Positions 16,225 to 37,918 of a stretch of DNA of 38,244 nt are shown piece by piece (the stretch's first letter is position 1; each line of letters begins with the position of its first letter). The DNA lies in NCBI GenBank assembly GCA_902727925.1, contig CACVAW010000018.1, forward strand, positions 1 through 38,244, given 5' to 3'. The notes beneath the pieces are model-generated. The model was not told the origin of the DNA, made no database searches, and saw only the letters and a program-made list of their open reading frames with translations. This stretch comes from an uncultured Campylobacterales bacterium (GTDB lineage Bacteria > Campylobacterota > Campylobacteria > Campylobacterales > CACVAW01). The translations under genes were made by a program, and so were the position numbers.

Positions 16225-16387
16225 CGAGACCTCTAAATATTTACAGCATTCATAAGAAAGGATTCTTTTGGCGATTTTTACAAAAATAAATTCTTATATT
16301 AGCTATGGCTAGTACTTCATCTTTATTTTTGTAAAACTCATCCAAAATCTTTCCTTCTATAAATTATATATTTATTCAGAGGTCTCA
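16225..16387. mobile_element. MITE copy A (163 bp, single hairpin)
   Basis: Begins CGAGACCTCT and ends AGAGGTCTCA, the terminal repeats of the family. The interior has a long stem (15 perfect base pairs 16276-16290 / 16322-16336, extended by GGATT-TTTTGG against CCAAAATCTTTCC) around a loop carrying GGCTAGTACTTC (16307-16318). The right half aligns with copy B at 17431-17562; the left hairpin of copy B is missing. No 5-bp target duplication is visible (CTGAT against ATCTT), so one end may have been lost or rearranged. It follows the murE stop by one base and supplies the TGA stop of the Fic gene. No ORF inside. Confidence 0.8.
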
Positions 16388-19419: not shown

Positions 19420-20930
19420 TAGTTTTCTTTTACCCCAACTCTAAGAATCTCATCAAAACTAGTAAGTCCCTCAGTATAGACTCTAAGAAGCTCATCACTA
19501 AGTGTTTTCATACCGTGATTTTTCATAAACTCTCTTATCTCAAAGTCATTTGAAATATCTTTTAAGTTTGATTTTACTGTATCATCTAATATGAATAGCT
19601 CTCCTACTGCTTGTCTGCCTGTATAACCTGTGAAGTTACACTCATGACATCCTACAGCCTTATATACTTCATGGTTTGATGAAATCCCAAATTCATTTAT
19701 TAGCATTGGGCTTACAGTTGTTTTTTCTTTACAATTAAGACATAGTTTTCTAACTAGTCTTTGAGCTAATATTCCAAGAACTGAAGAGGAAACAAGAAAT
19801 TCATCCACACCCATATCTACAAGCCTATTAAGCGCAGAAGTTGAGTTGTTTGTATGAAGTGTTGAAAATACTAAGTGTCCTGTAAGAGCTGCTTTAATTG
19901 CGATTGCAGCTGTTTCACTATCTCTTATTTCACCTATCATTATGATATCTGGATCTTGTCTTAGGATACTTCTTAGACCTGCTGAAAAGGTAAGTCCTAC
20001 ATCATTGTTTACTTGTATTTGATTTACATTTTGTGCATTATATTCTACTGGGTCTTCTACTGTGATTATGTTTTTTTCTTTTGATGCGACTTGTTGTAAG
20101 AATGAATGAAGAGTAGTTGATTTACCACTTCCTGTTGGTCCAGTTACAAGTATCATCCCATGTGAATGCTTAAGTAAATCATCATAGTGTTTATTAAGAT
20201 ATTCAGGAAAACCAAGGTCGTTAAGTGTAGGTATTTGATTTGACTGCATCAAAATCCTCATTACTACTCTCTCACCATAATAAGTTGGTAGTACTGATAC
20301 CCTGATATCAAGACTTTTGTCTGCTATTTTGATATTTGTTCGTCCATCTTGAGGTACTCTTTTTTCTGATATATCAAGATTTGATATTACCTTGATACGG
20401 CTTACTATAAGAGAAATTACTTTCTTATCAAGATCTACGTGTTTACTAAGTACTCCATCAACTCTAAATCTTACTTCACCTTTTTGTTCATGGTGTTCTA
20501 TATGTATATCTGATGCGTTCTTTTTGATAGCTTGATAAAACAAAGAGTTAACAAACTTTATTATAGGAGCTGAGTCTTCACTATCAAGTAAGTTTGTAGA
20601 CGATTGAAGAAATTCAATCAAACTTTCTTCATCTTCGTCAACACTGCTAGAAGTATCAACATCAGTCAAACTTCTATCAGTTTTGATCTCTACAAATCTT
20701 TTGTAGAGTCTTTCATAAGAAGCATCATCAAGTAATACAATCTCATAATCATCGTCAAGCTTAGATAAGAACTGATAGGCATTAACAAGGTCTGAGTCAT
20801 TTGAAACAACAGCCTTTACCTCACCATTAAGCTCACAAAAAAGTATCTTGTAAGATATTGCTAGACTTATATCTACTCCAGCAGGAATATTTGGTTTGGC
20901 GTCTACATTCTCTATTAACTTTAGATTCAT
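19419..20930 (-). CDS. gspE: Type II secretion assembly ATPase GspE
   Basis: A 503-residue hexameric ATPase at the cytoplasmic face. Walker A is GPTGSGKSTTLHS. The Asp box and Walker B are in LRQDPDIIMIGEIRDSETA, followed by the His box GHLVFSTLHTNNS. A zinc site is formed by CLNCKEK and CHECNFTGYTGR. The N-terminal part (VDISLAISYKILFCEL and following) resembles the GspE N1/N2 domains. It is the motor for pseudopilus extension. The operon also holds gspC, D, F, L, M and N. Length is typical. Confidence 0.95.
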   Translation of the reverse strand: MNLKLIENVDAKPNIPAGVDISLAISYKILFCELNGEVKAVVSNDSDLVNAYQFLSKLDDDYEIVLLDDASYERLYKRFVEIKTDRSLTDVDTSSSVDEDEESLIEFLQSSTNLLDSEDSAPIIKFVNSLFYQAIKKNASDIHIEHHEQKGEVRFRVDGVLSKHVDLDKKVISLIVSRIKVISNLDISEKRVPQDGRTNIKIADKSLDIRVSVLPTYYGERVVMRILMQSNQIPTLNDLGFPEYLNKHYDDLLKHSHGMILVTGPTGSGKSTTLHSFLQQVASKEKNIITVEDPVEYNAQNVNQIQVNNDVGLTFSAGLRSILRQDPDIIMIGEIRDSETAAIAIKAALTGHLVFSTLHTNNSTSALNRLVDMGVDEFLVSSSVLGILAQRLVRKLCLNCKEKTTVSPMLINEFGISSNHEVYKAVGCHECNFTGYTGRQAVGELFILDDTVKSNLKDISNDFEIREFMKNHGMKTLSDELLRVYTEGLTSFDEILRVGVKEN

Positions 20931-20938
20931 ATTTTGCC

Positions 20939-23221
20939 TTATCTATTAATATTTACAAAATCTGTTATTTTTGAATCTAAATGATCTTCTATATCAATAT
21001 CTATTTTTTTTGTTTTTTGTACTTTTGCCTTAGCATCAATTTTTACTACAATATCTTGAAGTTCAGATATGATATCATCAAATTCATTTGTATTTGTAGG
21101 TTCTGATATCTCTTCGTCAGTTACAAAATATTCATCTTTTTCTACGGGTTTTTCTATAACGATTTTTGAGTTTTTAGGTTCTTTTATATTACCCTCACTT
21201 AATATATATACTTTCTTAGAATCTTGATTTAAATTTGATTTTTTAACTTTTATATCAGATTTTTGTACATTTGATTTGTCAATCATATTCATAAATTCAT
21301 CTTCATTCTTTCTATCAACTAATGATTCACCACTATCATTAACACTAGTACTATAAGTTGTTTCTACGTCATTCGACAATTGTTCTGCTATACTATCAAC
21401 AACATCTCTTTTTAGGTTTTTTTCTAGATCTTTACCAACTGCTTTGTTGTAAACAAGCTGTAATTCATTAAGAGTTGAAAGTTTTTCTTTTAGCTTTGAA
21501 AGACCCCCACTTCTATTTACTATATAAGGTGTTAATATTATGACCAAATTTGTCATATCTTTTGAGCTACTTTCATAAGTAAATAGTTTACCTACTATTG
21601 GAATATCACCTAAAAGTGGTATTTTTTTAGTAGAATCACTTTTCTTATCTCTTATTAAACCTCCAACTATTACACTAGCTCCATCTTTAACAATAGCTGT
21701 AGTTTTTACTTCTCTTTTACTTGTTGTTACTTGACCATCTGAATTCACAGCCAAAACATCTTCAAGTTTTGTATGAACTTCTAAAATTACCTTATTGTCT
21801 TGCGAAACTCTTGGAGTTACCTCAAGACTAAGACCTATATCTTCTCTGCTGTATGTTCTATTACCAGATGTACTTGTTGTTGTATCAGTAGAACTTGTAA
21901 GTATAGGTTCAACTTGACCTACATATATAGAAGAACTTTCATTATTTATACAAAGAATTGATGGCTCAGAAAGAATATTTGCTACTCCATTTTCTTTTAG
22001 GAAACTTAATGTTGCACCTAAAGTAAGTGTTTTTAAGATATCACTGATTTCATAATTAATACTAGAAGCAAGTCCTAATACAGTTGGAGAATAAACGATT
22101 CCTTCATTTCTCGAACCTATAATATTAAGAGAGTCATCCATCAAGCTAATACCCATTTGAGAAGCTCTATCTGTACTTATTTCAATAATTTTTGCTTTTA
22201 CATATACTTGTTGTCTTTCAACATCAAGCATAGAAACCACTCTTTTTATCTTCTGATATTCGATACCACTTGATACTACGACAAGAGCATTAAGATTTTT
22301 GTCTGCACTTACAAATGGCTCAGGATCATTTACTGGTCGTTTTTGTTTTTTTACTATTGCATTTACAGTAGTTGCAACACTTGATGCTTCTGCGTTATTA
22401 AGATGTAATACAAACACTGATTGTTCAGCAGTTGATTCTTCTATATCTTCGACTAGTTCTTTAGTCATTTCATCTTGCTTCGCGTCAAGTCTTTCAATAT
22501 AAGGATAAAGCTTATCTATATTTGTTCTTGTACCAATTATAATAATTGAATTTGTAGTATCATTTTTCATAAGTACTACATTATGCACAGCACTCTTAAG
22601 AGGGAAAAGTGACTTTGCAATGAGCCTTACATCTACAAGCATTTTAGAAGCTTTTGTATACTGAAGTGGAACAAATTCAACTATTTTTTTGCTTTTGTCT
22701 GTTATTTCATTTATTATTTTTCTTACTGTTTTTATATTTTTTGGAAAATCACTTATTACAATAGAATTTGTATCTTGCATAATAACTATTTTCGCGTACG
22801 AGCTAAGAAGATGTTTGAATTGTCCAGCTACAAACTTAGCATCAATGTCATTTATCTTAATAACATCTGTTTTCATTTGTGATATTGTAGAATCTCTTAC
22901 TATAGGTAAATTCTCAGCTAATGCCGTATTCTTTTTAACTACTTTTAAAAACCCTTCTCCTGTATCAACTAAGGTATACTTTTTGGTTTCTAGTACTGAA
23001 TGAAGAAGCTCTATAAGTTGATTTTTTTCAATTGATTTATTTGATACAAAATTCACCTTACCTTTGAGTATTCCATCAATTAGTATATTTTTATTAGTTA
23101 TCTTAGCTACTATTTTTATGAATTGCTCTACTTCAAGATCTTTAAAGTTTATATCAACTTTTTGTGATAATAGTAACGATGTAAGAAACATTATCATTAC
23201 CAATAACTTATTTAATTTCAT
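20939..23221 (-). CDS. gspD: Type II secretion secretin GspD
   Basis: A 760-residue outer-membrane channel subunit with a signal peptide (MKLNKLLVMIMFLTSLLLS). N-domains follow (VDINFKDLEVEQFIKIVAKI; NSIVISDFPKNIKTV; NSIIIIGTRTNIDKL; LNALVVVSSGIEYQKI). The secretin core shows VYVKAKIIEIS, ILSEPSILCINNESSSIYVG, VGGLIRDKKSDSTKKIPLLG, PIVGKLF and NLVIILTPYIV. After about residue 590 comes a roughly 170-residue Ser/Lys/Asp-rich tail that is longer than usual and predicted disordered. The start overlaps the gspC end by 14 bases. Confidence 0.94.
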   Translation of the reverse strand: MKLNKLLVMIMFLTSLLLSQKVDINFKDLEVEQFIKIVAKITNKNILIDGILKGKVNFVSNKSIEKNQLIELLHSVLETKKYTLVDTGEGFLKVVKKNTALAENLPIVRDSTISQMKTDVIKINDIDAKFVAGQFKHLLSSYAKIVIMQDTNSIVISDFPKNIKTVRKIINEITDKSKKIVEFVPLQYTKASKMLVDVRLIAKSLFPLKSAVHNVVLMKNDTTNSIIIIGTRTNIDKLYPYIERLDAKQDEMTKELVEDIEESTAEQSVFVLHLNNAEASSVATTVNAIVKKQKRPVNDPEPFVSADKNLNALVVVSSGIEYQKIKRVVSMLDVERQQVYVKAKIIEISTDRASQMGISLMDDSLNIIGSRNEGIVYSPTVLGLASSINYEISDILKTLTLGATLSFLKENGVANILSEPSILCINNESSSIYVGQVEPILTSSTDTTTSTSGNRTYSREDIGLSLEVTPRVSQDNKVILEVHTKLEDVLAVNSDGQVTTSKREVKTTAIVKDGASVIVGGLIRDKKSDSTKKIPLLGDIPIVGKLFTYESSSKDMTNLVIILTPYIVNRSGGLSKLKEKLSTLNELQLVYNKAVGKDLEKNLKRDVVDSIAEQLSNDVETTYSTSVNDSGESLVDRKNEDEFMNMIDKSNVQKSDIKVKKSNLNQDSKKVYILSEGNIKEPKNSKIVIEKPVEKDEYFVTDEEISEPTNTNEFDDIISELQDIVVKIDAKAKVQKTKKIDIDIEDHLDSKITDFVNINR

Positions 23222-24071
23222 AGTTTATCTCCATTTCTTGTTCATCTCTTATATATTTTATATCAAGTTTTGTTATGCTTTTTCTTTTACCATAAAAATA
23301 CATCAAGTTAGACATTTTACTTAATGTTCTGCCATTAAGTTCTATTACTATGTCACCTCTTTTAAGACCTAAGCTTGCTAGTGGTGATCTTGCTTTGACA
23401 TATTGTATTTTGTACCCTATTATTTTGCCACTCTCTTTTTGTGGAGAAAACCTAATATCTCTTAAGACATCTTTTGAGCCATTAAGATAAGGTTGCAAAT
23501 CTTTCTTAGCTATTACTTTATTACTGACTGGTGCATTTTTTTGGGATCTTTTAGATCTGACTTTACTCTTTGTATCATCTTCAGGGATAAGTAACATTAA
23601 GTACTCATTTTGATTATCATCTGTAAACACTGCATAATTACGAGTAAGACTTGAAAGAGTATAGCCTTTATAGATCTCATACAAATCTACTATTTGCATC
23701 TCCCTATCATCAATAAAAGTAATAAAGCTTTTTTTACCTTCTATATAAATAGTTATTAGTTTTATTCTATTGATATCATATAGTTTTGGTTGCTTTTTTT
23801 TCTCTATTATTCTAGGAGCCTCAATAGTAGGTAAAGCTGATCTATTAGGTTTTGCCACTCGATTTGTTCTAGCTACTGGCTTAGGAGATTCAAAAGCAAA
23901 AGCATTAATAAATTCAAATCTTTTATAATAATCAGTATCATCGATTATAACTGTTTTAGTAGTATCTGGAAGATATTTCATATCAATTACCATAATAGGA
24001 ATTTTTACAAGTAAAAAAAGAGTAATAAAAATAAAAAGATATGAAGAGATAGTTTGTATATTAAATTTCAT
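23208..24071 (-). CDS. gspC: GspC-like PDZ protein of the type II secretion system
   Basis: A 287-residue inner-membrane-anchored periplasmic protein. I chose the ATG at 24071, preceded by GAGGGG at 7 bases, which puts the membrane helix (SYLFIFITLFLLVKIPIMVI) near the N-terminus; an upstream start would add 19 residues. The middle holds a homology-region-like part (FINAFAFESP to YTLSSLTRNYAVFTD). The C-terminus is a PDZ domain (YVKARSPLASLGLKRGDIVI, ELNGRTLS). GspC connects the inner platform to the secretin. It overlaps gspN upstream by 11 bases and gspD downstream. Confidence 0.82.
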   Translation of the reverse strand: MKFNIQTISSYLFIFITLFLLVKIPIMVIDMKYLPDTTKTVIIDDTDYYKRFEFINAFAFESPKPVARTNRVAKPNRSALPTIEAPRIIEKKKQPKLYDINRIKLITIYIEGKKSFITFIDDREMQIVDLYEIYKGYTLSSLTRNYAVFTDDNQNEYLMLLIPEDDTKSKVRSKRSQKNAPVSNKVIAKKDLQPYLNGSKDVLRDIRFSPQKESGKIIGYKIQYVKARSPLASLGLKRGDIVIELNGRTLSKMSNLMYFYGKRKSITKLDIKYIRDEQEMEINYEIK

Positions 24072-24570
24072 AAAAATACCCCTCATCAGTTTCTTTAAAT
24101 ATTTTTTGAATATTATCTTCAACTTCATAACCAGTTTTAGGAATAAGTTCTAGTATTAGTTTTTTCAGTTTGATATCATAACTACCTACTACTCTTCCTA
24201 TATTTGTCATTATTAATATATCTATACTTGTAGGTTTTATTGAAAGATATTTCACTCTAATAGTATTTATATCAAAACCGTATAAATCTCTGAATATATC
24301 AAGAGTTTTTATACCCTCGATATTGATACTATTGTAAAATAAAAAAGTATTAAACTTTATTTTTTCAATAGTAGCAAGCTTAATATCACCCTGATAATAC
24401 ACAACAGAATTAAGAGTTTTAAGATTAATTATATCACTAATCTTCTCTTCCACAATAACAAGCTCTTTATCACCTATTTTTTCTTCAAACAAATAATAAA
24501 GCTTCTCACGTGGCAATAAAAATATTATAAATATATATATAATTATAGGAAAAATAAAAAACTTTTTCAT
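24061..24570 (-). CDS. GspN-like type II secretion accessory protein
   Basis: A 169-residue bitopic protein: a short N-terminal membrane helix (FFIFPIIIYIFIIFLLP) followed by a periplasmic beta-rich domain (SVVYYQGDIKLATIEKIKFN, IKPTSIDILIMTNIG). Position between the GspM-like and GspC-like genes, size and topology fit GspN. Sequence similarity alone is too weak for certainty. It overlaps the previous gene by 4 bases and gspC by 11. Confidence 0.6.
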   Translation of the reverse strand: MKKFFIFPIIIYIFIIFLLPREKLYYLFEEKIGDKELVIVEEKISDIINLKTLNSVVYYQGDIKLATIEKIKFNTFLFYNSINIEGIKTLDIFRDLYGFDINTIRVKYLSIKPTSIDILIMTNIGRVVGSYDIKLKKLILELIPKTGYEVEDNIQKIFKETDEGYFYEI

Positions 24571-27950: not shown

Positions 27951-30563
27951 CTATAAATCCTCTAGATCATACCAACTATTTCCTACTTTGGAAGAAACAG
28001 TAAGAGGTACTTTTAACTCAACAATATTTTGCATTATATTTTTAATTTTAACACTATACTCATCAATCATCTCTTCTTTTACTTCAAAGATAAGTTCATC
28101 ATGAATTTGAAGTAGCATTTTGATATCGTCACTATTTTTGTGTGTTGCATAAAACTCATTCATAGCCATCTTGATTATATCAGCTGCACTTCCTTGAAAT
28201 ATAGTATTAACACTATCTCTTAGATATGCTGCTTTTTGCATACCATTAGCATTATCAAAGTCAAATATTCTTTGTCTATTTATTAATGTATTTACATATC
28301 CATCTACTTGAACTTGTTGTTCTACTGAAGCTATATAATCCTTAACGGTAGCAAAACTCTCAAAGTATTTATCGATATAGCTTTTTGCATCTTTGATACT
28401 TACATTGATAGTACGAGCTAGTTTATTTGCACCCATACCGTATATCAAACCAAAGTTCACTGCTTTTGCTATACTTCTATTATTGCCCTCATCATTTCCA
28501 AATATGCTAATAGCTGTAGCAGAGTGAATATCTTTGTTATCATTAAAGGCTTTTAGAAGTGTAGGGTCTTTAGAAAAATGTGCGAGTAATCTAAGCTCTA
28601 TTTGAGAATAATCAAAAGCCAAAAGCTTATAACCCTCTTTTGCAATAAAAGCTTTTTTGATTTGTTTACCCATCTCTTTTCGTGTAGGTATGTTTTGTAA
28701 ATTCGGATTTTTGCTACTAAGTCTTCCTGTTACTGTACCAGTATGAAGATATGATGTATATATTCTTTTTCTTTCATCTTTATTTGCGTACTCAATTAGA
28801 GGTTTGATATATGTAGAATTTAGCTTTTGTAGTTCTCTATATTCAAGTATCAAACCAATAATCTCATGACTATCCTCAATATTAAGAAGTACACTTTCAT
28901 TTGTACTATATCCAGTTTTTGTTTTTTTGCCTGATTTTAATCCAAGAGTTTCAAAAAGTACAACGCCCAGTTGCTTAGTTGATTTGATATTAAACTCACC
29001 ACCTGCGAGTTCATATATACTAGAAGTGAGGCTTTTTAATGTCTCATCAATTTCGCTTCCAAGTGTTTGAAGTACATTTGTATCTATTTTTATTCCATTT
29101 TTTTGCATATCAAGAAGCACATATATAAAAGGTATTTCAATATCTTCTAATATCTTTTGCTTTGTATCACTAAGACCCAAAGTATTATAGAGCTTAAGTG
29201 TAAGCAAAGCATCTTCTGATGCATACATACAAGCATTTTTGATATCCACACTAGCAAAGCTCTCACCTGATTTTACTGTATTATTGAACTTAATGGTCTC
29301 ATGGTTAAAGTATTTTTTAGCCATACTATCAAGTGAATGACTACCCTCAGGATTAATAAGCCAAGAAGAGACCATAGTATCACTATGAATTTTAAAGTCA
29401 AGATTAAAGTTATGTCTAATTACTGCTAAATCATATTTGAGGTTTTGTCCTACAATTTTATGTTCAAAAAGTTTTTTTAAAAACTCTCTTGCATCATCTA
29501 AAGAGATTTGATTACCAACTCCTAGATAGCTATGCGCTATAGGTACATAGTAAGCATTTTTTTCATGAAAGCTAAATGAAAATCCAATGATATTAGCAAT
29601 CTTCACATCAAGTGAAGAGGTCTCAGTATCAAAAGCTACTATAGAATTTTCAGGAATTTTCAAGTCTTGTAACTTCTCTTTAGTATCTAGAAGTATAGAA
29701 TCAAACTTGATAGTAGGGACTACTTTTTTTATTCTCCTAGTAACTGCTTTGATATCATAGATATCTAATTCATCTTTGATACTTTCTACTGGGTCTTTCG
29801 GAAAAGCCATATCCTCATCTTCAATATCAATCTCAGTATCTTTTAATCCAACTAACTCATATGACATAAAAGCATTCTCTTTTGATTCTTGCAATAACAG
29901 TGCTGTTCTTTTATTTGGAATTAGACCTAGGTTCTCATAAATAGAGTGAAAACTACCAAAATCATCAAGAAGTTTTTTTGCGCCTTTTGCACCTATTCCT
30001 TTGACTCCTGGTATATTATCACTAGCATCTCCAAGGATTGAGAGATAGTCTCTTATTTGTGATGGCTTTACACCAAACTTTTCTATACATCCCTGTTCGT
30101 CTATAAGAGTACGAAGTCTTGGATTATATATTTGTATATTTTTATTTATAAGTTGATAGAGATCTTTATCATAAGTTACAACTTTGATTTTATACTCATC
30201 TTCATATCTCTGACACAAAGAATATATAATATCATCAGCTTCAAGATGGTCAACTTCAACAGTCATAAAACCCATCTTTTTAATAAAATCTATTGCTATA
30301 GGAAGTTGTACTTTTAGCTCATCAGGAGCTGGTTTTCTATTTGCTTTATAGTTAGGATCAATATCAAGCCTAAAGTTTCTTGTTTTTGAATCAAGTGCAA
30401 AAACTATACTATCAGTATCAAGTTCGCTTTGCAAGTTAGAAACAAAATTAATAAATCCAGTAAGAAGACCTGTAGGATGACCTGAGCTACTAACAAGTGG
30501 AGGAAGAGCATGATAAGAACTAAAGAAAAATCCAAATGTATCTATAATAGAAAGTGTCTTCAC
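27951..30563 (-). CDS. polA: DNA polymerase I
   Basis: An 870-residue repair and Okazaki-maturation polymerase with all three domains. The 5' nuclease domain shows FALDSKTRNFR, YKANRK, EVDHLEADDII and GIGAKGAKKLL. The 3'-5' exonuclease residues are present (FDTET, GQNLKYDL, YASED), so proofreading should be active. The polymerase motifs are FDYSQIELRLLAHFS (A), RSIAKAVNFGLIYGMG (B) and IHDELIFEV (C). Its ATG overlaps the upstream HExxH membrane protein gene by 4 bases. Confidence 0.97.
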   Translation of the reverse strand: MKTLSIIDTFGFFFSSYHALPPLVSSSGHPTGLLTGFINFVSNLQSELDTDSIVFALDSKTRNFRLDIDPNYKANRKPAPDELKVQLPIAIDFIKKMGFMTVEVDHLEADDIIYSLCQRYEDEYKIKVVTYDKDLYQLINKNIQIYNPRLRTLIDEQGCIEKFGVKPSQIRDYLSILGDASDNIPGVKGIGAKGAKKLLDDFGSFHSIYENLGLIPNKRTALLLQESKENAFMSYELVGLKDTEIDIEDEDMAFPKDPVESIKDELDIYDIKAVTRRIKKVVPTIKFDSILLDTKEKLQDLKIPENSIVAFDTETSSLDVKIANIIGFSFSFHEKNAYYVPIAHSYLGVGNQISLDDAREFLKKLFEHKIVGQNLKYDLAVIRHNFNLDFKIHSDTMVSSWLINPEGSHSLDSMAKKYFNHETIKFNNTVKSGESFASVDIKNACMYASEDALLTLKLYNTLGLSDTKQKILEDIEIPFIYVLLDMQKNGIKIDTNVLQTLGSEIDETLKSLTSSIYELAGGEFNIKSTKQLGVVLFETLGLKSGKKTKTGYSTNESVLLNIEDSHEIIGLILEYRELQKLNSTYIKPLIEYANKDERKRIYTSYLHTGTVTGRLSSKNPNLQNIPTRKEMGKQIKKAFIAKEGYKLLAFDYSQIELRLLAHFSKDPTLLKAFNDNKDIHSATAISIFGNDEGNNRSIAKAVNFGLIYGMGANKLARTINVSIKDAKSYIDKYFESFATVKDYIASVEQQVQVDGYVNTLINRQRIFDFDNANGMQKAAYLRDSVNTIFQGSAADIIKMAMNEFYATHKNSDDIKMLLQIHDELIFEVKEEMIDEYSVKIKNIMQNIVELKVPLTVSSKVGNSWYDLEDL

Positions 30564-31087
30564 AATAACCTTTCAATCAAAAAATATCCACCAATATAAC
30601 AAAGCACTACATAAAACACTATACCAGTAAAACTCGAACGCGCAACTTTAAAATCCTGCGATGATGGTATTGCACTTGTAATAGTAACTACAATTATAAA
30701 TAAATATAAAAAATAACTAAGAACGTTTTTTTCAAAGAAAACAAAAAAATACTTATCTATATAAAAAGCAAGAATCAAAAGTAAAAAAGGAGCAAATGCC
30801 GTAGGTATTGCGTTGTACCATTTCACATTACTAAACTGTACATGACCGAGCATATAACCATACTGAGTTTTTTGAGGTATTACAGAAAAAGCAAATGGTT
30901 TGGCATTGAGAATTGCACCCACAACAAAATGAGCTACTTCATGAAAAAAAACACCAAAGATATCAAAAATCCAAGCTGTAAAAATATTTTTATAAAACTT
31001 TCGTTGAAGAGAGTGTACAAGTAAAATCATAAAAGCAAATAATACAGGATTTCCTGTGATATAGTCTATGATTTCTACTGTACTCAT
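30560..31087 (-). CDS. Membrane HExxH protein, putative M50-like metalloprotease
   Basis: A 175-residue polytopic protein with about five hydrophobic stretches. FHEVAHF (His49, Glu50, His53) is a zinc metalloprotease motif placed inside or next to a membrane helix, and a later SSQDFKVA offers a possible third metal ligand. This is the general layout of site-2-type (M50) intramembrane proteases, but it lacks the usual NxxPxPPLDG motif and PDZ domain. It starts after the 31094-31127 terminator and overlaps polA by 4 bases, so it heads the polA-tat-queA operon. Substrate unknown. Confidence 0.6.
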   Translation of the reverse strand: MSTVEIIDYITGNPVLFAFMILLVHSLQRKFYKNIFTAWIFDIFGVFFHEVAHFVVGAILNAKPFAFSVIPQKTQYGYMLGHVQFSNVKWYNAIPTAFAPFLLLILAFYIDKYFFVFFEKNVLSYFLYLFIIVVTITSAIPSSQDFKVARSSFTGIVFYVVLCYIGGYFLIERLL

Positions 31088-31093
31088 ATTAAT

Positions 31094-31127
31094 CCAAAAA
31101 AGGGACTCTTCTAAAGATAGAAGAGTC
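31094..31127 (-). terminator. Intrinsic terminator of the tra-like operon
   Basis: GACTCTTCT (31104-31112) pairs with AGAAGAGTC (31119-31127) around a 6-nt loop. Read on the minus strand it is followed by CCTTTTTTGG, a U-tract. It sits just after the DsbC-like stop and separates the secreted operon from the polA group. Confidence 0.75.
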
Positions 31128-31135
31128 TTAAATTT

Positions 31136-31867
31136 TTAACGAAGAAGTGAAGGCCAAGAAACAAACTTACCATTACTATCAAACACTGTAGGTGTACCTT
31201 TTAGTCCAAGTGTATTAGCTATACCCTTATGTAAGTTAATCACTTTTGAATACTTAGCTTTTTGTTCTGCACTTAGAGGGTTTGTTCTCCACTGTCCATT
31301 TGAAAGAGCATCAAATTTTTCTTCATCTGTATCTTGAGCCATTGAATACATAGCTATATTTGCAGCATTCTTATGATTTGGTAATGGATAGAAGAAGAAA
31401 TATATAGTTGCACTCTCTCTAATCTCTACATTACTTTTAAGTTCAGATTCAAATCTCTTACAATATGGACACTCAGGATCAGTAAAAACATAATATTTTT
31501 TCTTACCAGTTCCATATTTAAAAGCTGCATATTTATCATATTTTTTCATATTTACAGGAATAATAAGCTCTTTACCAAACTTATCAAAACCTTTACCAAT
31601 TACACTAAGAGTATAATCTTTTGTTACAAAAGCATCAAAGTTTTGTTTTCTACCCTGAGCTGATCTTGCACTAAGAACTACTTGATGAAGTTCCCCTCTA
31701 TCTACTACTTTTTTGATTTCGATTCCAGGCTTTTGAAAAACCTTCATTGCTTTTATTCTTTCAACTGGACTTCTTGTATCACTATCTTGTTTTTTAGCAG
31801 GACTCTTAACACAACCTACAGATAATACAAGAACTGCACCTAGTACTAATAATTTTTTTATATTCAT
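31136..31867 (-). CDS. DsbC-like thiol-disulfide isomerase lipoprotein
   Basis: A 243-residue periplasmic protein. The signal peptide ends in LSVGC, a lipobox, so it is probably membrane-anchored. The thioredoxin fold carries the active site DPECPYCKRFE with Cys-Pro-Tyr-Cys, followed by FFFYPLPNHKNAANIA and the cis-proline loop LGLKGTPTVFDSNGK. An N-terminal DsbC-type dimerisation part (IEIKKVVDRGELHQVVLSAR) precedes it. Last gene of the operon behind TraF/TraH-like proteins; F-type systems commonly carry a DsbC for their cysteine-rich envelope proteins. Confidence 0.88.
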   Translation of the reverse strand: MNIKKLLVLGAVLVLSVGCVKSPAKKQDSDTRSPVERIKAMKVFQKPGIEIKKVVDRGELHQVVLSARSAQGRKQNFDAFVTKDYTLSVIGKGFDKFGKELIIPVNMKKYDKYAAFKYGTGKKKYYVFTDPECPYCKRFESELKSNVEIRESATIYFFFYPLPNHKNAANIAMYSMAQDTDEEKFDALSNGQWRTNPLSAEQKAKYSKVINLHKGIANTLGLKGTPTVFDSNGKFVSWPSLLR

Positions 31868-31899
31868 AATAAAATCCTTTTTTATTTCTTTAATAAAAC

Positions 31900-32469
31900 T
31901 TATCTTGTTCTTGGAGTGATAGTTGATACTCTTAGATATCTATTATCACCAATTTTTGCCCAACCATCAGTTATTTCACTAACATATACAGGCTCATCTT
32001 TTGGTAATACATCAATTACATTCTTTTTGTTGACTTTTGACTTACTTGATCTTACATTTACGTAATGTGCTGTAACTTTATAAGGCTTTAAGTTTATAAG
32101 CTTTTTATTATTTGCTGTTAATTCTATACTATTATTACTATCTTTTGATTTATCAACTTCACCAAAATATACAGGATCAAATATAGCGTCTACATTAGAT
32201 TTTTTTACTTTTACTATTTTTTTACTATCAAGTGCATCTTGATCTATAATAGCATCTTTGAACTGGGATTTTTCAGAACCCTCAGGAATATCACACACAG
32301 AGTTACTAGAAAGCGTATCTACTTGTGATTCAAGATTTTCTATCTTGTCTATTAATATAGAAACAGCTTTTTTAGTATGTACGTCATTTTTATATACATA
32401 CTTTTTAGTCCCACAACCTGATAATACAAGTACTGCTGATACTGCGATTAAACTTAATTTTATATACAA
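31900..32469 (-). CDS. SH3-domain lipoprotein
   Basis: A 189-residue lipoprotein with signal peptide and lipobox LVLSGCG. A short coiled coil (ILIDKIENLESQVDTL) and a linker rich in Lys, Asp and Asn follow. The C-terminal 60 residues form a bacterial SH3 domain (VTAHYVNVRSSKSK, VYVSEITDGWAKIGDNRYL), which often binds peptidoglycan. The start is TTG with AAGGAG 7 bases upstream. In size and lipoprotein nature it could take the place of TraV, but I see no direct similarity. Confidence 0.72.
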   Translation of the reverse strand: MYIKLSLIAVSAVLVLSGCGTKKYVYKNDVHTKKAVSILIDKIENLESQVDTLSSNSVCDIPEGSEKSQFKDAIIDQDALDSKKIVKVKKSNVDAIFDPVYFGEVDKSKDSNNSIELTANNKKLINLKPYKVTAHYVNVRSSKSKVNKKNVIDVLPKDEPVYVSEITDGWAKIGDNRYLRVSTITPRTR

Positions 32470-32486
32470 TTTGATTCTCCTTAAAG

Positions 32487-33014
32487 TTATTTTAATAACT
32501 TTTTATTTATATTTATATACTTTTCATATACTCTAGAAGCATACGCTCTGGATCTTTTTTTCGTAAAACTATGGTATTTTCCCACAGTATTCCAGTTCCA
32601 ACCATAACTACTTTTTAAGTTCATTAATATATCACAAGCCTTCTTATAAGATTGTGATAGATTGAAGTAATTTTCAATTTTTATTTTATGATAGTTATAA
32701 TTTATCTGAAAAGCTCCCAAATCAAGATTAGTGATACCAACCGATCTAAGGTATTTAAATATCTTAGTACACTTCTCTTTACTTTCACAATCAATACTTC
32801 TTTTATCTATAAACTTATTTTTATATTTTGAACGTACTTTTGAAGAATCTCTTGATTTGTTAAAAGATATCAAGAATGGATACCCAATACCTCTTTTTGG
32901 ATGTGCTTCAACACTAGCTATACTATAAAGAAGATTATATGATATATCACACTCACTACTTGCTTTTTTAGCAAATAGTAAGCTACTTAGTAGTATTAGT
33001 ATCGTTATTTTCAC
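32487..33014 (-). CDS. Lytic transglycosylase (VirB1/SLT-like)
   Basis: A 175-residue secreted protein (signal peptide MKITILILLSSLLFA, GTG start). The SLT-like fold shows LYSIASVEAHPKRGIGYPF, where Glu is the likely catalytic acid, then NLDLGAFQINYNYHK and YGWNWNTVGKYHSFTKKRSR. Such enzymes open peptidoglycan locally for type IV secretion assembly. Four to five cysteines may form disulfides. It overlaps the Sel1-repeat gene by 32 bases. Confidence 0.82.
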   Translation of the reverse strand: MKITILILLSSLLFAKKASSECDISYNLLYSIASVEAHPKRGIGYPFLISFNKSRDSSKVRSKYKNKFIDKRSIDCESKEKCTKIFKYLRSVGITNLDLGAFQINYNYHKIKIENYFNLSQSYKKACDILMNLKSSYGWNWNTVGKYHSFTKKRSRAYASRVYEKYININKKLLK

Positions 33015-33705
33015 TATTTGGAACTACCTCTACATAATCAGAATTAAAACACTCTCTTTTAATCTCAGGTGGAGTTTGAGAATTTAGACAAGCGATATTA
33101 AGATACATATTTGCTTTTCTTATATTCCCACGAGCTTTATAAAGATGAGCTAAATAAAACGCCCCTCTAAGAGACTTTTGGTTCACCGCAAGAGGTTCTA
33201 CATATCTTATAGCATTATTGACTGCTATATCTTCTTTAATAAAATGTTGAAGCACAACAGAACTAAACATCATTGCCATAATCAATCTTTGTTTTGGTGG
33301 TATTTTTTTTGCTTTTGTATCTTCAAATTTCACTATCTTTTCAAATGTTGCTAGTGCGTTAGCATGATTTTTCTCATTTAACTCAAGCATACCAAGATAT
33401 ATAGCAGAGTTTACAATACCATGTCTCACTCCAAGATCAAAAGCTTTTTTGGCCTTTTTAGAGTCTCTTTTTATATTAATATCACTTAGGTTATGGTCTC
33501 TCATATACAACCTACCCAAGAAATAAGTTGCATCATACTCCTCTATAGATATGAGTTTGAGAAGTTCAGTTTCTGTTCTTTTATAATCCGCAAGATTACT
33601 TATACCAGCGCTCAGATTCAAGTCATCTTCTTGATACTCTACAAATTCAGGACTTAATCCAAACAGTAAAGTACCAAAAACCAAAAAGCCAAATAATACT
33701 TTCAT
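32983..33705 (-). CDS. Secreted Sel1/TPR-repeat protein
   Basis: A 240-residue protein with signal peptide MKVLFGFLVFGTLLFG. The body is helical with Sel1/TPR-like repeats: YDATYFLGRLYMRDH, AKKAFDLGVRHGIVNSAIYL, NHANALATFEKIV, LRGAFYLAHLYKARGNIRKA. It likely acts as a periplasmic protein-interaction scaffold. The ATG is one base after the TraH-like stop and its end overlaps the transglycosylase start, placing it in the middle of the operon. Confidence 0.75.
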   Translation of the reverse strand: MKVLFGFLVFGTLLFGLSPEFVEYQEDDLNLSAGISNLADYKRTETELLKLISIEEYDATYFLGRLYMRDHNLSDINIKRDSKKAKKAFDLGVRHGIVNSAIYLGMLELNEKNHANALATFEKIVKFEDTKAKKIPPKQRLIMAMMFSSVVLQHFIKEDIAVNNAIRYVEPLAVNQKSLRGAFYLAHLYKARGNIRKANMYLNIACLNSQTPPEIKRECFNSDYVEVVPNSENNDTNTTK

Positions 33706-33706
33706 A

Positions 33707-35680
33707 TTAATTATTAGACTGATTTATTGTATTTTTCAGTCTAAGCTCTCTTACTTCTTTTTCTGCTGCATACATCTTAGCTATTAACGTACCACTATCT
33801 TTATTCATTTTCTCAATTCTTTGCTCAAACTCTTCGCCTAGTTCCTGAGATATTTGGTCCATTTCTCTAAGTTTTATATGAATAGCTTCAAATGCACTAG
33901 TACTAGTTTTTGCAAAAGGTAAAGAGTCTAGTACAGTGGCAACTGTACCTATAAACTCAGATAAAAACTCTTGTGTCATTTTATAAGCAAGCCTAATCTG
34001 AAGATCAGAAGCACTATTAAACACATCATTAAAACTTCTACCACCAACAGATAAAAGAATTGCAAGGTTTTTAATATATCTTTTATATCTTGGCATATCA
34101 GATATAAATGTCACAAAAGGCTCACTTTGAGCTCTTACAAACAAATCATCACATCCTGTAAAAACTTTACTTCCATCTGCTAACTCTGTAGAGCGGTATT
34201 TTGCCAAACTCTCATAGTTAATTACTTTTCCAGCAATTGCTGCATTACCTGATTTTGTAGTATTTAATTCCACACACATCATGTATTGGACAGATTTTTC
34301 AGCTTCAGCGATAAATCCATCCCATTCAATAAGTTCGGTAGATTTCTGCTTCTCTATAGCTAAAACTACTCCTCTGATTAATTCGCCTTTAATAGCAGGG
34401 TCTTCATTAGAACTAATATTATATATAATAACTGGGTTATTTGGTACAACACATTCAGTAGGGCTGGTAGGGTCATTAGAATAATTACACTTAGCCTTAT
34501 GAGCTCCATCCATTAATAACTTACCAAAATCGTTTTTCTGCATTACTCCACCAACAAATGAGTTAATATCCTTTTCAGATAAATCATCAGCGCTAGCTAG
34601 AAGCCTCTTAATGTAACCTTCAAGTTTTTGTAGAGATCCTGTTACATTCAAAAACTCTTGCAAAAATCCTTCTTCTATTACATTGTCTCCTACTAGAAGA
34701 TACAGTAACTGATATAGAAGTATTTTTTGTTTTAGTCTCATATGTTCTGGTCCATTCATACCTATACTTTCACATTCAGCATCCACAGATTTTCCAAACA
34801 GCTTTGGACTCAAAGGACCTTTATTCATATTTGTACTTGTATCACTAGGGTGTAAATACTTAATACTAGGATCAGGAGTTAAAGTACCAAGAGAATCAAG
34901 GGTTGAGAATACTGTACTTAAATTAGTTAAGAATATACCTTCTTTTTCTTCGCCACCTTTACACCACTGATACTTACTAAACATTGATGAGTATATAGAA
35001 CCAGCACTTTTTTCAAATATTCTATAAAATGCACCATGCGCTATCTTTCCTGCATCAGCTTTTTTATCAGGATCAGCAATCTCAGCTGTTTTTTCTGTTA
35101 CCCATTTTTGGAGTTCTGTATTAGCATAATTAATTTTTCCTGCAATATGTTCATCTAACCTTTTCATTGGCCCAAAAATACCGTTATCAAGAGTAGCCCC
35201 AACACCATCAAGCCCCCAACGTGAACCTATAGCTTTACCTAAAGAACAAGCATCAGAAAGCAACTTCCTAATATCCTGAGCCATTTTTCTTAGAGCTTCA
35301 AAAGCTTTACCTAGTTTTGGTACTGTAATATCCATAGCAAGTATCAATCCCCAAACCAAAGTTACTGAAAAATCTTCTAATAAAAGCTTGATATCATCTA
35401 TTCCGAACCATTGTAAAATAGCAGCTTTAAAATCCATACCATCACAACCCCATCTGACTTCGGCTGGTTGATAATTAAACATTGGTTCAGAGGTTCTACT
35501 AGGGTTTTTAAACCTTACACTGAAACTAAAAGCATTTTTATATTGGTCTCCAGTAAAAGGATCAGTCCAAGTTGCAGCATCTGTTTTTGATATGTCAATA
35601 TGATCATTTATATTAAGTGCATTAAGTGTACCTAAGAGGAACACTCCCAGTAATAAGATTTTTAATATACTATTTTTCAT
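33707..35680 (-). CDS. TraH-like conjugation/envelope protein
   Basis: A 657-residue secreted protein. I chose the ATG at 35680, with AGGAG at 7 bases, giving signal peptide MKNSILKILLLGVFLLGTLN; an upstream start would add 9 charged residues. The segment near residues 80-155 (RWGCDGMDFKAAILQWFGID, then LLLEDFSVTLVWGLILAMDI, then DACSLGKAIG) follows the TraH layout of F-type systems: a cysteine-led region, a hydrophobic stretch, then a second cysteine region. The C-terminal 60 residues are coiled coil. Eight cysteines suggest disulfides. TraH helps extend the F pilus and stabilise mating pairs. The family call is moderate, as the sequence is distant. Confidence 0.62.
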   Translation of the reverse strand: MKNSILKILLLGVFLLGTLNALNINDHIDISKTDAATWTDPFTGDQYKNAFSFSVRFKNPSRTSEPMFNYQPAEVRWGCDGMDFKAAILQWFGIDDIKLLLEDFSVTLVWGLILAMDITVPKLGKAFEALRKMAQDIRKLLSDACSLGKAIGSRWGLDGVGATLDNGIFGPMKRLDEHIAGKINYANTELQKWVTEKTAEIADPDKKADAGKIAHGAFYRIFEKSAGSIYSSMFSKYQWCKGGEEKEGIFLTNLSTVFSTLDSLGTLTPDPSIKYLHPSDTSTNMNKGPLSPKLFGKSVDAECESIGMNGPEHMRLKQKILLYQLLYLLVGDNVIEEGFLQEFLNVTGSLQKLEGYIKRLLASADDLSEKDINSFVGGVMQKNDFGKLLMDGAHKAKCNYSNDPTSPTECVVPNNPVIIYNISSNEDPAIKGELIRGVVLAIEKQKSTELIEWDGFIAEAEKSVQYMMCVELNTTKSGNAAIAGKVINYESLAKYRSTELADGSKVFTGCDDLFVRAQSEPFVTFISDMPRYKRYIKNLAILLSVGGRSFNDVFNSASDLQIRLAYKMTQEFLSEFIGTVATVLDSLPFAKTSTSAFEAIHIKLREMDQISQELGEEFEQRIEKMNKDSGTLIAKMYAAEKEVRELRLKNTINQSNN

Positions 35681-36752
35681 TTTTAACTCCTTGTTTGTAC
35701 TCTTCATTTATGTCATCTATTTTTATACTACTGTAATCATAATAATGTTGATAATGTTTTTTGATCTGATCACTTCCGTGGTCTTCCCATGAGTCATAAG
35801 TCATCACATCACCATAACCTATAAGATCTTCATATTCAAGGAATGTATATATTTTACTCATTATTTGATATGTACTGACCTTACCTATAAGAAGTCCATC
35901 ATATTTATCTTTAGGGTATTGGTATAGGCCCATTGTAGGTGTTGTATAGATACTATGTTTATCAAAAAGCTTTTCACTCACAATCATACTGTTGGCTCTT
36001 TTAAAAAGCAATTTGATAGAAGTAATCTTTTTGGCTTCTCTTTCGAGAGCTTTTTTACTGCTTTCGTTATAAAAGACTATTGTTAGCTCTACATTTTCCA
36101 TCAATCTAAACGCTTCATAATATTCAGTAAGAGAGAAAAGATCTAGATTAGCGTTTTTCCCGACAAAAAGATATATCATGATGTCATCTTTGAGAGTTTC
36201 TATTTTTGCAATTCTTGCTTTTTTATCTAAAGAATAATCTGATCCAAGATTATCTGATGTAGTTGAACCTCTTGAACTTAGAGGGCTAGCTTCTTTACCC
36301 CACTGCACGCCTGCGAGTTCAAACGCTTTTCCTGATTTTGTTATTTGTTGTACATATTTTGCTTGCCATTTGAGATATTCTTTGGCATTTTCTTTTGTTG
36401 GTTCGCTTACCCATTGTCCCATCACTGGAATTCTTTTTGCAGTTGGGGTTAATGGCATTTTGAAACATTTTGCTGATGAGTTTGCTAAACATGTTGTGCC
36501 GTCTGCAAGTGTTATTGTTTCCGGGGTTGGGTCATATTCGTTTTTTAGTACTTCTAGGATTTTGTTTTGGGTTATGAGTTGTTCTTTTTGGACTTTGAGC
36601 ATTTCTTTGAGTATTTCTATCATTGTTTTTTGATTTTTTTTGAGGTCATCGAAGTTGACTTGACCAAACCTAGCGCCACCTTCATTAGTAGATCCAGTAT
36701 TCGCAAAGCTGACATTAAAAAGGAGTAAAACTAAAAACAAATTCTTAAACAT
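35670..36752 (-). CDS. TraF-like thioredoxin-fold envelope protein
   Basis: A 360-residue secreted protein (signal peptide MFKNLFLVLLLFNVSFA). A coiled coil follows (LKEMLKVQKEQLITQNKILE). Then comes a TraF-type segment, WVSEPTKENAKEYLKWQAKY with SGKAFELAGVQWG, and a thioredoxin-like domain (IMIYLFVGKNANLDLFSLTE; VELTIVFYN; SIYTTPTMGLYQYP with a cis-proline-like TPT). The catalytic Cys-x2-Cys is absent, as in TraF of F-type systems. First gene of the six-gene operon. It overlaps the next gene by about 11 bases. Confidence 0.6.
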   Translation of the reverse strand: MFKNLFLVLLLFNVSFANTGSTNEGGARFGQVNFDDLKKNQKTMIEILKEMLKVQKEQLITQNKILEVLKNEYDPTPETITLADGTTCLANSSAKCFKMPLTPTAKRIPVMGQWVSEPTKENAKEYLKWQAKYVQQITKSGKAFELAGVQWGKEASPLSSRGSTTSDNLGSDYSLDKKARIAKIETLKDDIMIYLFVGKNANLDLFSLTEYYEAFRLMENVELTIVFYNESSKKALEREAKKITSIKLLFKRANSMIVSEKLFDKHSIYTTPTMGLYQYPKDKYDGLLIGKVSTYQIMSKIYTFLEYEDLIGYGDVMTYDSWEDHGSDQIKKHYQHYYDYSSIKIDDINEEYKQGVKNEK

Positions 36753-36862: not shown

Positions 36863-37918
36863 ATGAACGAACTAATAAAAAAGATTAAAAACAACATTAG
36901 AATCACGCAAGATGAAGCTTTGAAGCTCTATGATATGGACTTACTAGAGCTTGGAAATCTTGCTAATGATATACGAGTGCGTAAGTTTGGTAAAGAGACT
37001 TTTTACAATATCAACAGACATATCAATCCTACAAACTACTGCAAAGATACTTGTAAGTTTTGTGCTTTTAGTAAACATAGGGCAAAAACCTCATATACAA
37101 TGACTCACGAACAAGTACTTGAAGCTGTAAAAACAGCACACAATGAAAACATAACAGAAGTACATATAGTCTCAGGTCACAATAATAAAGTGGGACTTGA
37201 CTGGTATATGGATATGTTTAAAATAATCAAAGAAAAATACCCGAATATCCATATAAAAGCAATGACAGCAGCAGAAGTAAACTTCATAGCAAAAGAATAC
37301 GACATGAGCTACAAAGAAGTTCTAGAAATGATGATAAAAAATGGAGTAGACTCTATGCCTGGTGGTGGAGCTGAAATATTTGATGAAGAGGTCAGACGAG
37401 AGATTTGTAGAGGTAAGGTAAGCTCTGATGAGTATATAGAGATTCACAAAACTTGGCATGAAATGGGTAGACACAGTACTTGTACAATGCTATTTGGTCA
37501 TGTAGAAAATAGAGCACATAGAATAGACCATATGAACAGACTAAGAGATTTGCAAGATATCACAGGAGGATTCAAAGCCTTTATACCTCTTGTATACCAA
37601 ACAAAAAACAACTACCTGAATATAAAAGACCCTCTTAATGCTATAGAGATACTCAAAACTTACGCAATAGCTAGAATATTCTTAGATAATTTTTCACATA
37701 TCAAAGCATATTGGGTGACTACAACTATTAACTTGTCTCTTATAGCTCAAGAGTTTGGAGCAAACGACCTTGATGGTACTATACAAAAAGAGACTATCAA
37801 CTCAAGCGCAGGAGCTGCGAGTGCCAATGGTCTTGAACTTGAGAGATTCAAAGCTCTTATAACAAACAGTGGATTTATACCTGTACAAAGAGACAGTCTA
37901 AACAGAGTGGTTGCATAA
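36863..37918 (+). CDS. mqnE: Aminofutalosine synthase MqnE (radical SAM)
   Basis: A 351-residue enzyme of futalosine-dependent menaquinone synthesis; it joins 3-[(1-carboxyvinyl)oxy]benzoate to adenosine using a SAM radical. NINRHINPTNYCKDTCKFCA carries the Cys-x3-Cys-x2-Cys cluster motif in the MqnE-specific HINPTN context. Further landmarks are EVHIVSGHNNKVGLDWYMDM, DSMPGGGAEIFDEEVR and GSAGA-like NSSAGAASANGLEL. Menaquinone made here would feed the FrdCAB reductase. Its stop directly abuts that of the convergent FtsL-like gene. Confidence 0.92.
   Translation: MNELIKKIKNNIRITQDEALKLYDMDLLELGNLANDIRVRKFGKETFYNINRHINPTNYCKDTCKFCAFSKHRAKTSYTMTHEQVLEAVKTAHNENITEVHIVSGHNNKVGLDWYMDMFKIIKEKYPNIHIKAMTAAEVNFIAKEYDMSYKEVLEMMIKNGVDSMPGGGAEIFDEEVRREICRGKVSSDEYIEIHKTWHEMGRHSTCTMLFGHVENRAHRIDHMNRLRDLQDITGGFKAFIPLVYQTKNNYLNIKDPLNAIEILKTYAIARIFLDNFSHIKAYWVTTTINLSLIAQEFGANDLDGTIQKETINSSAGAASANGLELERFKALITNSGFIPVQRDSLNRVVA

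What the first reader, a model, noticed from the sequence alone, without database searches (positions are those of the whole stretch)
31136..36752. Orphan F-type conjugation envelope module (TraF/TraH/Sel1/transglycosylase/SH3/DsbC) in a core locus
Six tightly packed minus-strand genes all carry signal peptides or lipoboxes. Two resemble TraF and TraH, which in F-type type IV secretion work at the outer membrane in pilus handling and mating-pair stabilisation. Yet no TraC-type ATPase, coupling protein, relaxase or pilin is present. The set is flanked by mqnE on one side and, past a terminator, the polA-tatBC-queA group on the other, so it looks settled in the chromosome rather than plasmid-borne. 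It may be a repurposed apparatus, for example for DNA release or uptake, a pilus, or attachment. Signal peptides and gene order are seen directly; TraF/TraH identity is motif-level; the role is inference.
Basis: partly seen in the sequence, partly recalled or inferred. Interest (0 to 1): 0.75.

Follow-up and report, generated by a model that had tools for sequence, protein, structure and literature searches.

The report
Chromosomally scattered, c-di-GMP-linked F-type T4SS
The six (really seven) genes are not an orphan: they are one of at least four separate chromosomal pieces of a nearly complete F-plasmid-like secretion/pilus machine whose motor carries a built-in signal-molecule (c-di-GMP) sensor-like domain, which suggests a conjugation apparatus that has been taken apart, kept under selection and probably given a new job.

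Summary
The gene module is real and TraF/TraH are supported, but "orphan" is wrong. A seventh gene (30560-31087, HExxH membrane protein) belongs with it. The same 1.5-Mb Campylobacterales genome encodes the rest of an F-type T4SS in three other places: pilin-TraL-TraE-TraK beside topA, TraB-TraV-TraC between addAB and secA, and TraW-TraU-TrbC-TraN-like beside yifB. In relatives (Malaciobacter mytili plasmid pAMYT; an unnamed complete genome, G171) the same genes form one contiguous cluster in the same block order, so an ancestral cluster was cut into blocks. The window module is the outer-membrane/periplasmic assembly block. Not found: TraG and the cluster's own coupling protein. The only MobA-family relaxase found, plus VirD4-type coupling proteins, lies on small mobile-element contigs. 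A co-assembled second haplotype has the module at the same site with dN/dS 0.05-0.16, so it is maintained. The TraC ATPase is fused to an EAL domain in this genome and three relatives; the fused EALs have lost catalytic residues, while stand-alone EALs in related tra clusters keep them, suggesting c-di-GMP sensing. Best reading: a domesticated, non-self-transmissible F-type pilus/secretion machine gated by c-di-GMP. Substrate unknown. New variant of a known kind.

The parts
35670..36752 (-). TraF-like periplasmic protein (360 aa)
   Evidence: blastp to pAMYT (E 1e-32), G171 (E 5e-41) and Persephonella TraF (E 1e-6); PF13728 hit in one member of the aligned set; dN/dS 0.058
33707..35707 (-). 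TraH (666 aa), signal peptide
   Evidence: PF06122 30.5 bits over cut-off; homologues in pAMYT, G171, Persephonella; dN/dS 0.157
32983..33705 (-). TPR-like secreted protein (240 aa)
   Evidence: same gene next to TraF in pAMYT and G171 tra clusters (E 1e-11 to 1e-12); dN/dS 0.048
32487..33014 (-). VirB1/IagB-like putative lytic transglycosylase (175 aa)
   Evidence: 37-42% identity to genes in the tra clusters of G171 and pAMYT; weak NCBIfam IagB hit
31900..32469 (-). SH3b-like lipoprotein (189 aa; lipobox LSGC)
   Evidence: weak SH3b; short match to the G171 gene between LT and TraH
31136..31867 (-). DsbC/DsbG-like thiol oxidoreductase, probable lipoprotein, CxxC at residue 133
   Evidence: PF13098 9e-12, DsbG 2e-9; tra-cluster homologues in G171 (E 4e-43), pAMYT, Persephonella
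31104..31127 (-). intrinsic terminator-like hairpin after the DsbC-like gene (also terminator-like on the + strand, 31102-31129)
30560..31087 (-). M50-like membrane protein with HExxH (175 aa); seventh member of the module, overlaps the polA start
   Evidence: 39% identical to the tra-cluster gene of G171, 31% to pAMYT, HExxH invariant; 32 of 41 plasmid matches are on conjugative plasmids
36863..37918 (+). flanking core gene mqnE (same neighbour in the second haplotype C31)
   Evidence: NCBIfam equivalog; C31 contig L003
27951..30563 (-). flanking core gene polA
   Evidence: ORF and translation

Best explanation
The window module is the outer-membrane/periplasmic assembly block (TraF, TraH, TPR protein, transglycosylase, SH3 lipoprotein, DsbC-type isomerase, HExxH membrane protein) of a near-complete F-type type IV secretion system whose genes have been split into at least four chromosomal operons. 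Shown: the other blocks exist in the same genome and are homologous, in block order, to contiguous clusters of relatives; the module is under purifying selection in two co-occurring haplotypes. Inferred: TraC (Walker A intact) powers assembly of a TraA/VirB2-type pilus or channel through the TraB/K/V core; the window proteins process the periplasm and peptidoglycan, fold disulfide-bonded Tra proteins and serve the outer-membrane side of the pilus; the degenerate EAL domain on TraC binds c-di-GMP and switches the motor on or off; because TraG and the cluster's own coupling protein were not found, the machine no longer transfers its own DNA and serves as a domesticated pilus or secretion device. 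The substrate (protein, DNA in trans, or attachment only) is unknown.
For: Own genome: TraC PF11130 2e-29, TraE 9.6e-16, TrbI/VirB10 6.8e-23 and TrbC_Ftype 1.2e-10, TraU 6.7e-5, TraL/TraK/TraV/TraW by blastp, a 105-aa pilin-like protein. Three loci have core genes on both sides: mqnE|tra|polA, addA|tra|secA, mrp|tra|yifB; the fourth abuts topA. G171 has the same blocks in one run: pilin-L-E-K-B-V-...-G-...-C-T4CP-...-F-TPR-LT-SH3-H-M50-DsbC-W-U-TrbC-N-like. A second haplotype has the module at the same site; dN/dS TraF 0.058, TPR 0.048, TraH 0.157 against mqnE 0.041. EAL on TraC in all four systems of this type; the second Asp of the DD motif and the first Glu of the AEGVE-type motif are lost in all four, while N, K, the last E and Q are kept; both are kept in stand-alone EALs of related tra clusters. 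GGDEF proteins exist in the genome. TraG absent with positive controls.
Against: No expression, pilus or secretion data. TraG carries the VirB6-like part in F systems (established knowledge); without it a working channel is doubtful unless a diverged substitute exists or the gene lies in an assembly gap (69 contigs). TraN-like, TraW and TraU assignments are weak. VirD4-type coupling proteins and one relaxase exist on small contigs, so DNA transfer in trans is possible. c-di-GMP binding is inferred from residues only. No sister species was available to show that the scattered layout is inherited.
Confidence: 0.6

Rival explanations
1. The scattered T4SS is still a DNA-transfer machine: mobilizable elements in the same genome supply the relaxase and a VirD4-type coupling protein in trans and use it to move.
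For: C27 carries VirD4, J-domain protein, MobA relaxase and MobC; C55 a 70%-identical VirD4 with a J-domain protein.
Against: These VirD4 proteins are not related at blastp level to the coupling protein of the related tra clusters; TraG, needed for mating-pair stabilisation in F, was not found.
Confidence: 0.2
2. It is a decaying integrated conjugative element broken up by rearrangements, without function.
For: TraG and the cognate coupling protein were not found; the blocks are dispersed.
Against: All ORFs of four blocks are intact and dN/dS is nearly as low as for a core gene; base composition matches the flanks; TraC Walker A is intact.
Confidence: 0.09
3. One reading: a stand-alone TraF/TraH envelope module repurposed without the rest of a T4SS.
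For: No ATPase, pilin or coupling protein of a T4SS inside the window.
Against: The missing components are elsewhere in the same genome and match the same clusters of relatives as the window genes.
Confidence: 0.04
4. Binning or assembly artefact: tra contigs come from another organism or are chimeric.
For: The genome is a draft with 1.8% contamination and a redundant haplotype contig.
Against: tra blocks sit inside contigs with core genes on both sides in three cases; composition matches; a second independent contig shows the same mqnE-tra junction.
Confidence: 0.03

Closest known systems
Contiguous F-type tra cluster of Malaciobacter mytili pAMYT (NZ_CP031220) and of G171, with a partial Sulfurimonas indica NW8N contig
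   Same: Homologous components in the same block order; TraC fused to an EAL domain; HExxH membrane protein, DsbC and transglycosylase beside TraF/TraH
   Different: Those are single clusters with TraG and a dedicated coupling protein; here the cluster is split over at least four chromosomal loci and those two were not found. Proteins are only about 20-40% identical.
Rickettsiales vir homolog (rvh) T4SS
   Same: A T4SS scattered over several chromosomal locales and conserved (PMC2653234)
   Different: rvh is P-type (VirB/VirD4), with VirB6 and VirD4 retained; this one is F-type with TraF/TraH/TraU/TrbC and an EAL-fused ATPase.
Gonococcal Genetic Island T4SS
   Same: Chromosomal F-type T4SS with TraA-L-E-K-B-DsbC-V-C-W-U-TrbC-N-F-H and a transglycosylase (PMC4207684)
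   Different: GGI is one island with TraD, TraI and TraG, which are needed for DNA secretion; here these were not found as cluster members.
F-type tra clusters of Campylobacter iguaniorum pCIG1485E and Nitrosophilus labii pHRV44
   Same: Campylobacterota F-type clusters with c-di-GMP proteins (EAL between TraU and TrbC, an annotated diguanylate cyclase next to the HExxH-type gene)
   Different: EAL is a separate protein with canonical motifs, not fused to TraC.
FimX-type degenerate EAL domains
   Same: EAL domain working with pilus machinery, catalytic residues lost, sequence match in the PDB search
   Different: FimX regulates type IV pili and is not fused to the ATPase; here the EAL is fused to a VirB4-family ATPase.

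Membership tests
F-type (MPF_F) T4SS | VirB4/TraC ATPase with TraC_F_IV domain | tested here: met
   PF11130 2e-29; Walker A GYSGSGKS
F-type (MPF_F) T4SS | F-specific TraH, TraF, TraU, TrbC | tested here: met
   TraH over cut-off, TrbC 1.2e-10, TraU 6.7e-5 below cut-off, TraF via homologues
F-type (MPF_F) T4SS | Core complex TraB, TraK, TraV and inner parts TraL, TraE, pilin | tested here: met
   pilin by size, signal and two further TM segments only
F-type (MPF_F) T4SS | TraG (VirB6-like / mating-pair stabilisation) | tested here: not met
   no hit with PF07916, pAMYT TraG or alignment A7, while three relatives ring; assembly gap possible
F-type (MPF_F) T4SS | TraN mating-pair adhesin | tested here: inconclusive
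   chain of weak blastp matches to Persephonella TraN through pAMYT/G171
Self-transmissible conjugative element (plasmid/ICE) | Contiguous transfer region | tested here: not met
   four loci, three flanked by core genes on both sides
Self-transmissible conjugative element (plasmid/ICE) | Relaxase and cognate coupling protein with the system | tested here: not met
   one MobA-family relaxase on a small contig with its own VirD4; other relaxase families were not searched
rvh-type dispersed T4SS | P-type VirB proteins incl. VirB8/B9/B11/D4 | tested here: not met
   the components found match F-type families; no direct search for P-type families was run
c-di-GMP receptor EAL (FimX-like) | EAL fold with lost catalytic residues but kept ligand residues | tested here: met
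   sequence level only
c-di-GMP receptor EAL (FimX-like) | Measured c-di-GMP binding | not testable with these tools
   needs protein

The most novel reading that the evidence does not exclude
A chromosomally domesticated F-type T4SS, fragmented into at least four operons like rickettsial rvh, that has dropped its own DNA-transfer parts and is gated directly by c-di-GMP through a receptor EAL domain fused to its VirB4/TraC motor; such motor-fused sensing may be a recurrent trait of Campylobacterota F-type systems.
Probability: 0.4. Interest if true: 0.8.

Novelty: new variant of a known kind. Interest (0 to 1): 0.62.

Why it matters
Dispersed, vertically kept T4SSs are, as far as I know, described for P-type rvh in Rickettsiales; an F-type counterpart in Campylobacterota would show a second route from conjugation to a host-owned machine. 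A c-di-GMP-sensing domain covalently attached to a T4SS motor would link the biofilm/motility signal to conjugative pili and makes a direct biochemical test possible. It also warns that 'orphan' tra genes in a window may be one block of a scattered machine. My literature searches found no report of a VirB4/TraC-EAL fusion, but only open-licence papers were searched.

Tried and rejected
Orphan module: rejected by whole-genome family searches. Second TraH copy on C31 as a paralogous system: rejected, it is a 93%-identical haplotype of the same locus with the same neighbours. TraF identity by direct Pfam/NCBIfam: negative, settled through homologues. TraG: three different searches, negative, the last with positive controls. 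Window TraH protein search in 59 other Campylobacterales genomes: no hit, so the better-conserved TraC was used instead, which found the relatives. Genome-contig scan with the TraC alignment gave only S. indica; viral contigs none. First local BLAST of C31 failed because the file was not yet present. Structure prediction was not run: the informative homologues are not among the sequences allowed in that tool and single-sequence models are usually poor. Caminibacter pacificus plasmid gave no recognisable tra annotation near the DsbC-like match. DNA-uptake role from the DNA-metabolism neighbours (polA, addAB, topA, yifB): considered, but these are ordinary core genes, so no weight given.
Full report
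WHAT IS THERE. The six minus-strand ORFs at 31136-36752 are real, intact and close-packed. TraH passes the curated Pfam cut-off (30.5 bits). The 360-aa protein has no Pfam hit of its own but aligns with the TraF-position proteins of pAMYT, G171 and Persephonella (E 1e-32, 5e-41, 1e-6); one member of that aligned set scores PF13728 at 2.6e-52. The DsbC/DsbG-like protein has a CxxC; the transglycosylase, TPR ('Sel1') and SH3 labels are weak by profile but the first two have counterparts beside TraF/TraH in tra clusters of relatives. A terminator hairpin follows the DsbC-like gene, yet the next gene, 30560-31087, is also a tra-cluster gene: an HExxH membrane protein, 39% and 31% identical to genes in the G171 and pAMYT clusters, whose plasmid matches are mostly on conjugative plasmids (32 of 41). 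It overlaps the polA start. The module therefore spans 30560-36752.

IT IS NOT ORPHAN. Family searches of the window's own genome (1.50 Mb, 69 contigs, 99% complete, 1.8% contamination) found TraC, TraU, TraE and a redundant haplotype of the window locus. Reading around them gave three further blocks: (a) C15: pilin-like, TraL, TraE, TraK and a 764-aa putative lipoprotein, then topA; (b) C68: addB-addA, then TraB, a 67-aa ORF, TraV, a 155-aa protein, TraC, then secA; (c) C67: TraW, TraU, TrbC, an 888-aa and a 1469-aa secreted protein and one more, between mrp and yifB. Pfam supports TraB, TrbC and TraC; TraL, TraK, TraV, TraW rest on blastp to pAMYT/G171. Blocks on C18, C67 and C68 have core genes on both sides; C15 only on one side.

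ANCESTRAL LAYOUT. In Malaciobacter mytili pAMYT and in the complete genome G171 the homologous genes form one run. In G171 the order is pilin-L-E-K-B-V-x-x-G-x-x-C-T4CP-MoxR ... F-TPR-LT-SH3-H-x-M50-DsbC-x-W-U-TrbC-N-like. The four blocks here correspond to four consecutive stretches of that order. Only 4 of 399 sampled genomes of the order have the closely related TraC with a frame above 1100 aa; one is Sulfurimonas indica NW8N. Divergence is deep (TraC about 30% identity).

MAINTAINED. The second haplotype (C31) has mqnE-TraF-TraH-TPR-LT in the same order. Between haplotypes dN/dS is 0.058 (TraF), 0.157 (TraH), 0.048 (TPR), against 0.041 for mqnE. GC and GC3 of the blocks match neighbouring core genes. 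This argues against decay and against contamination.

WHAT IS MISSING. TraG was not found with PF07916, pAMYT TraG or an alignment profile that rings in G171, G164 and S. indica. The coupling protein of the related clusters has no counterpart; the TraG-D_C matches in this genome are TraC itself, two VirD4-type proteins on small contigs (C27, C55) and a protein of an element with ParA on C43. The only MobA-family relaxase is on C27 with its own VirD4. So self-transfer functions are not part of the scattered system as assembled; assembly gaps remain possible.

THE MOTOR CARRIES AN EAL DOMAIN. TraC is 1156 aa; residues 926-1152 are an EAL domain (1.9e-38). The same fusion is found in the S. indica, G171 and pAMYT TraC, not in Persephonella TraC (926 aa). 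In all four fusions the second Asp of the DD motif and the first Glu of the AEGVE-type motif are replaced, while the EAL Glu, Asn, Lys, last Glu and Gln are kept. Stand-alone EAL proteins of the S. indica contig, pAMYT, pCIG1485E and pHRV44 keep both lost residues. Catalytic roles of these positions are established knowledge on EAL phosphodiesterases; that such degenerate domains often act as receptors (FimX, LapD) likewise. The genome has two GGDEF proteins. I infer a c-di-GMP sensor on the motor. Related clusters in C. iguaniorum and Nitrosophilus labii also hold EAL and annotated diguanylate cyclase genes, so the link between c-di-GMP and F-type systems recurs in this phylum.

MECHANISM. 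Shown: components, scattering, selection. Inferred: TraC drives assembly of a pilus/channel through TraB/K/V; the window block supplies outer-membrane and periplasmic assembly, disulfide folding and peptidoglycan opening; c-di-GMP gates it. Substrate unknown. In the gonococcal F-type island traF, traH, traN, traG, dsbC and the transglycosylase ltgX are needed for DNA secretion (PMC4207684), so the lack of TraG is the main difficulty for any secretion reading. I put the part 'this module is one block of a scattered F-type T4SS' at about 0.93, 'domesticated, not self-transmissible' at about 0.6 and 'c-di-GMP-gated' at about 0.5.

COMPARISON. Rickettsia rvh is the known case of a scattered T4SS (PMC2653234), but it is P-type. 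I found no paper on a VirB4/TraC-EAL fusion; the paper library is partial.

Noticed in passing
window 18211-24128 (minus): T2SS/Cts-like operon: GspF, GspE, secretin with N0 domain, PDZ (GspC-like) protein and small genes upstream next to queA; may be the transformation (cts) or a secretion system.
   Followed up: no
window 16385-17179 (minus): Fic/DOC-domain protein with a winged helix-turn-helix C-terminus.
   Followed up: no
L003 (G000:C31): Redundant haplotype of the window locus in the same assembly: the genome is a strain mixture.
   Followed up: yes
L047 203-2543 and L048 134-2639: Two VirD4-type coupling proteins (70% identical), each followed by a protein with a C-terminal J-domain; C27 adds MobA and MobC. 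Coupling protein plus J-domain pairs look unusual.
   Followed up: partly
L068 7909-8649 and L069 1165-1911: EAL protein gene inserted between TraU and TrbC, plus an annotated diguanylate cyclase beside the HExxH gene, in two Campylobacterota plasmids from different orders.
   Followed up: partly
L049 8705-9004 and 10200-10574: Two nearly identical coiled-coil genes differing in the number of internal repeats.
   Followed up: no
L051 4630-5964: MoxR-like ATPase near gyrA, 32-35% identical to ATPases that follow TraC and the coupling protein in related tra clusters; may be a further displaced member.
   Followed up: partly
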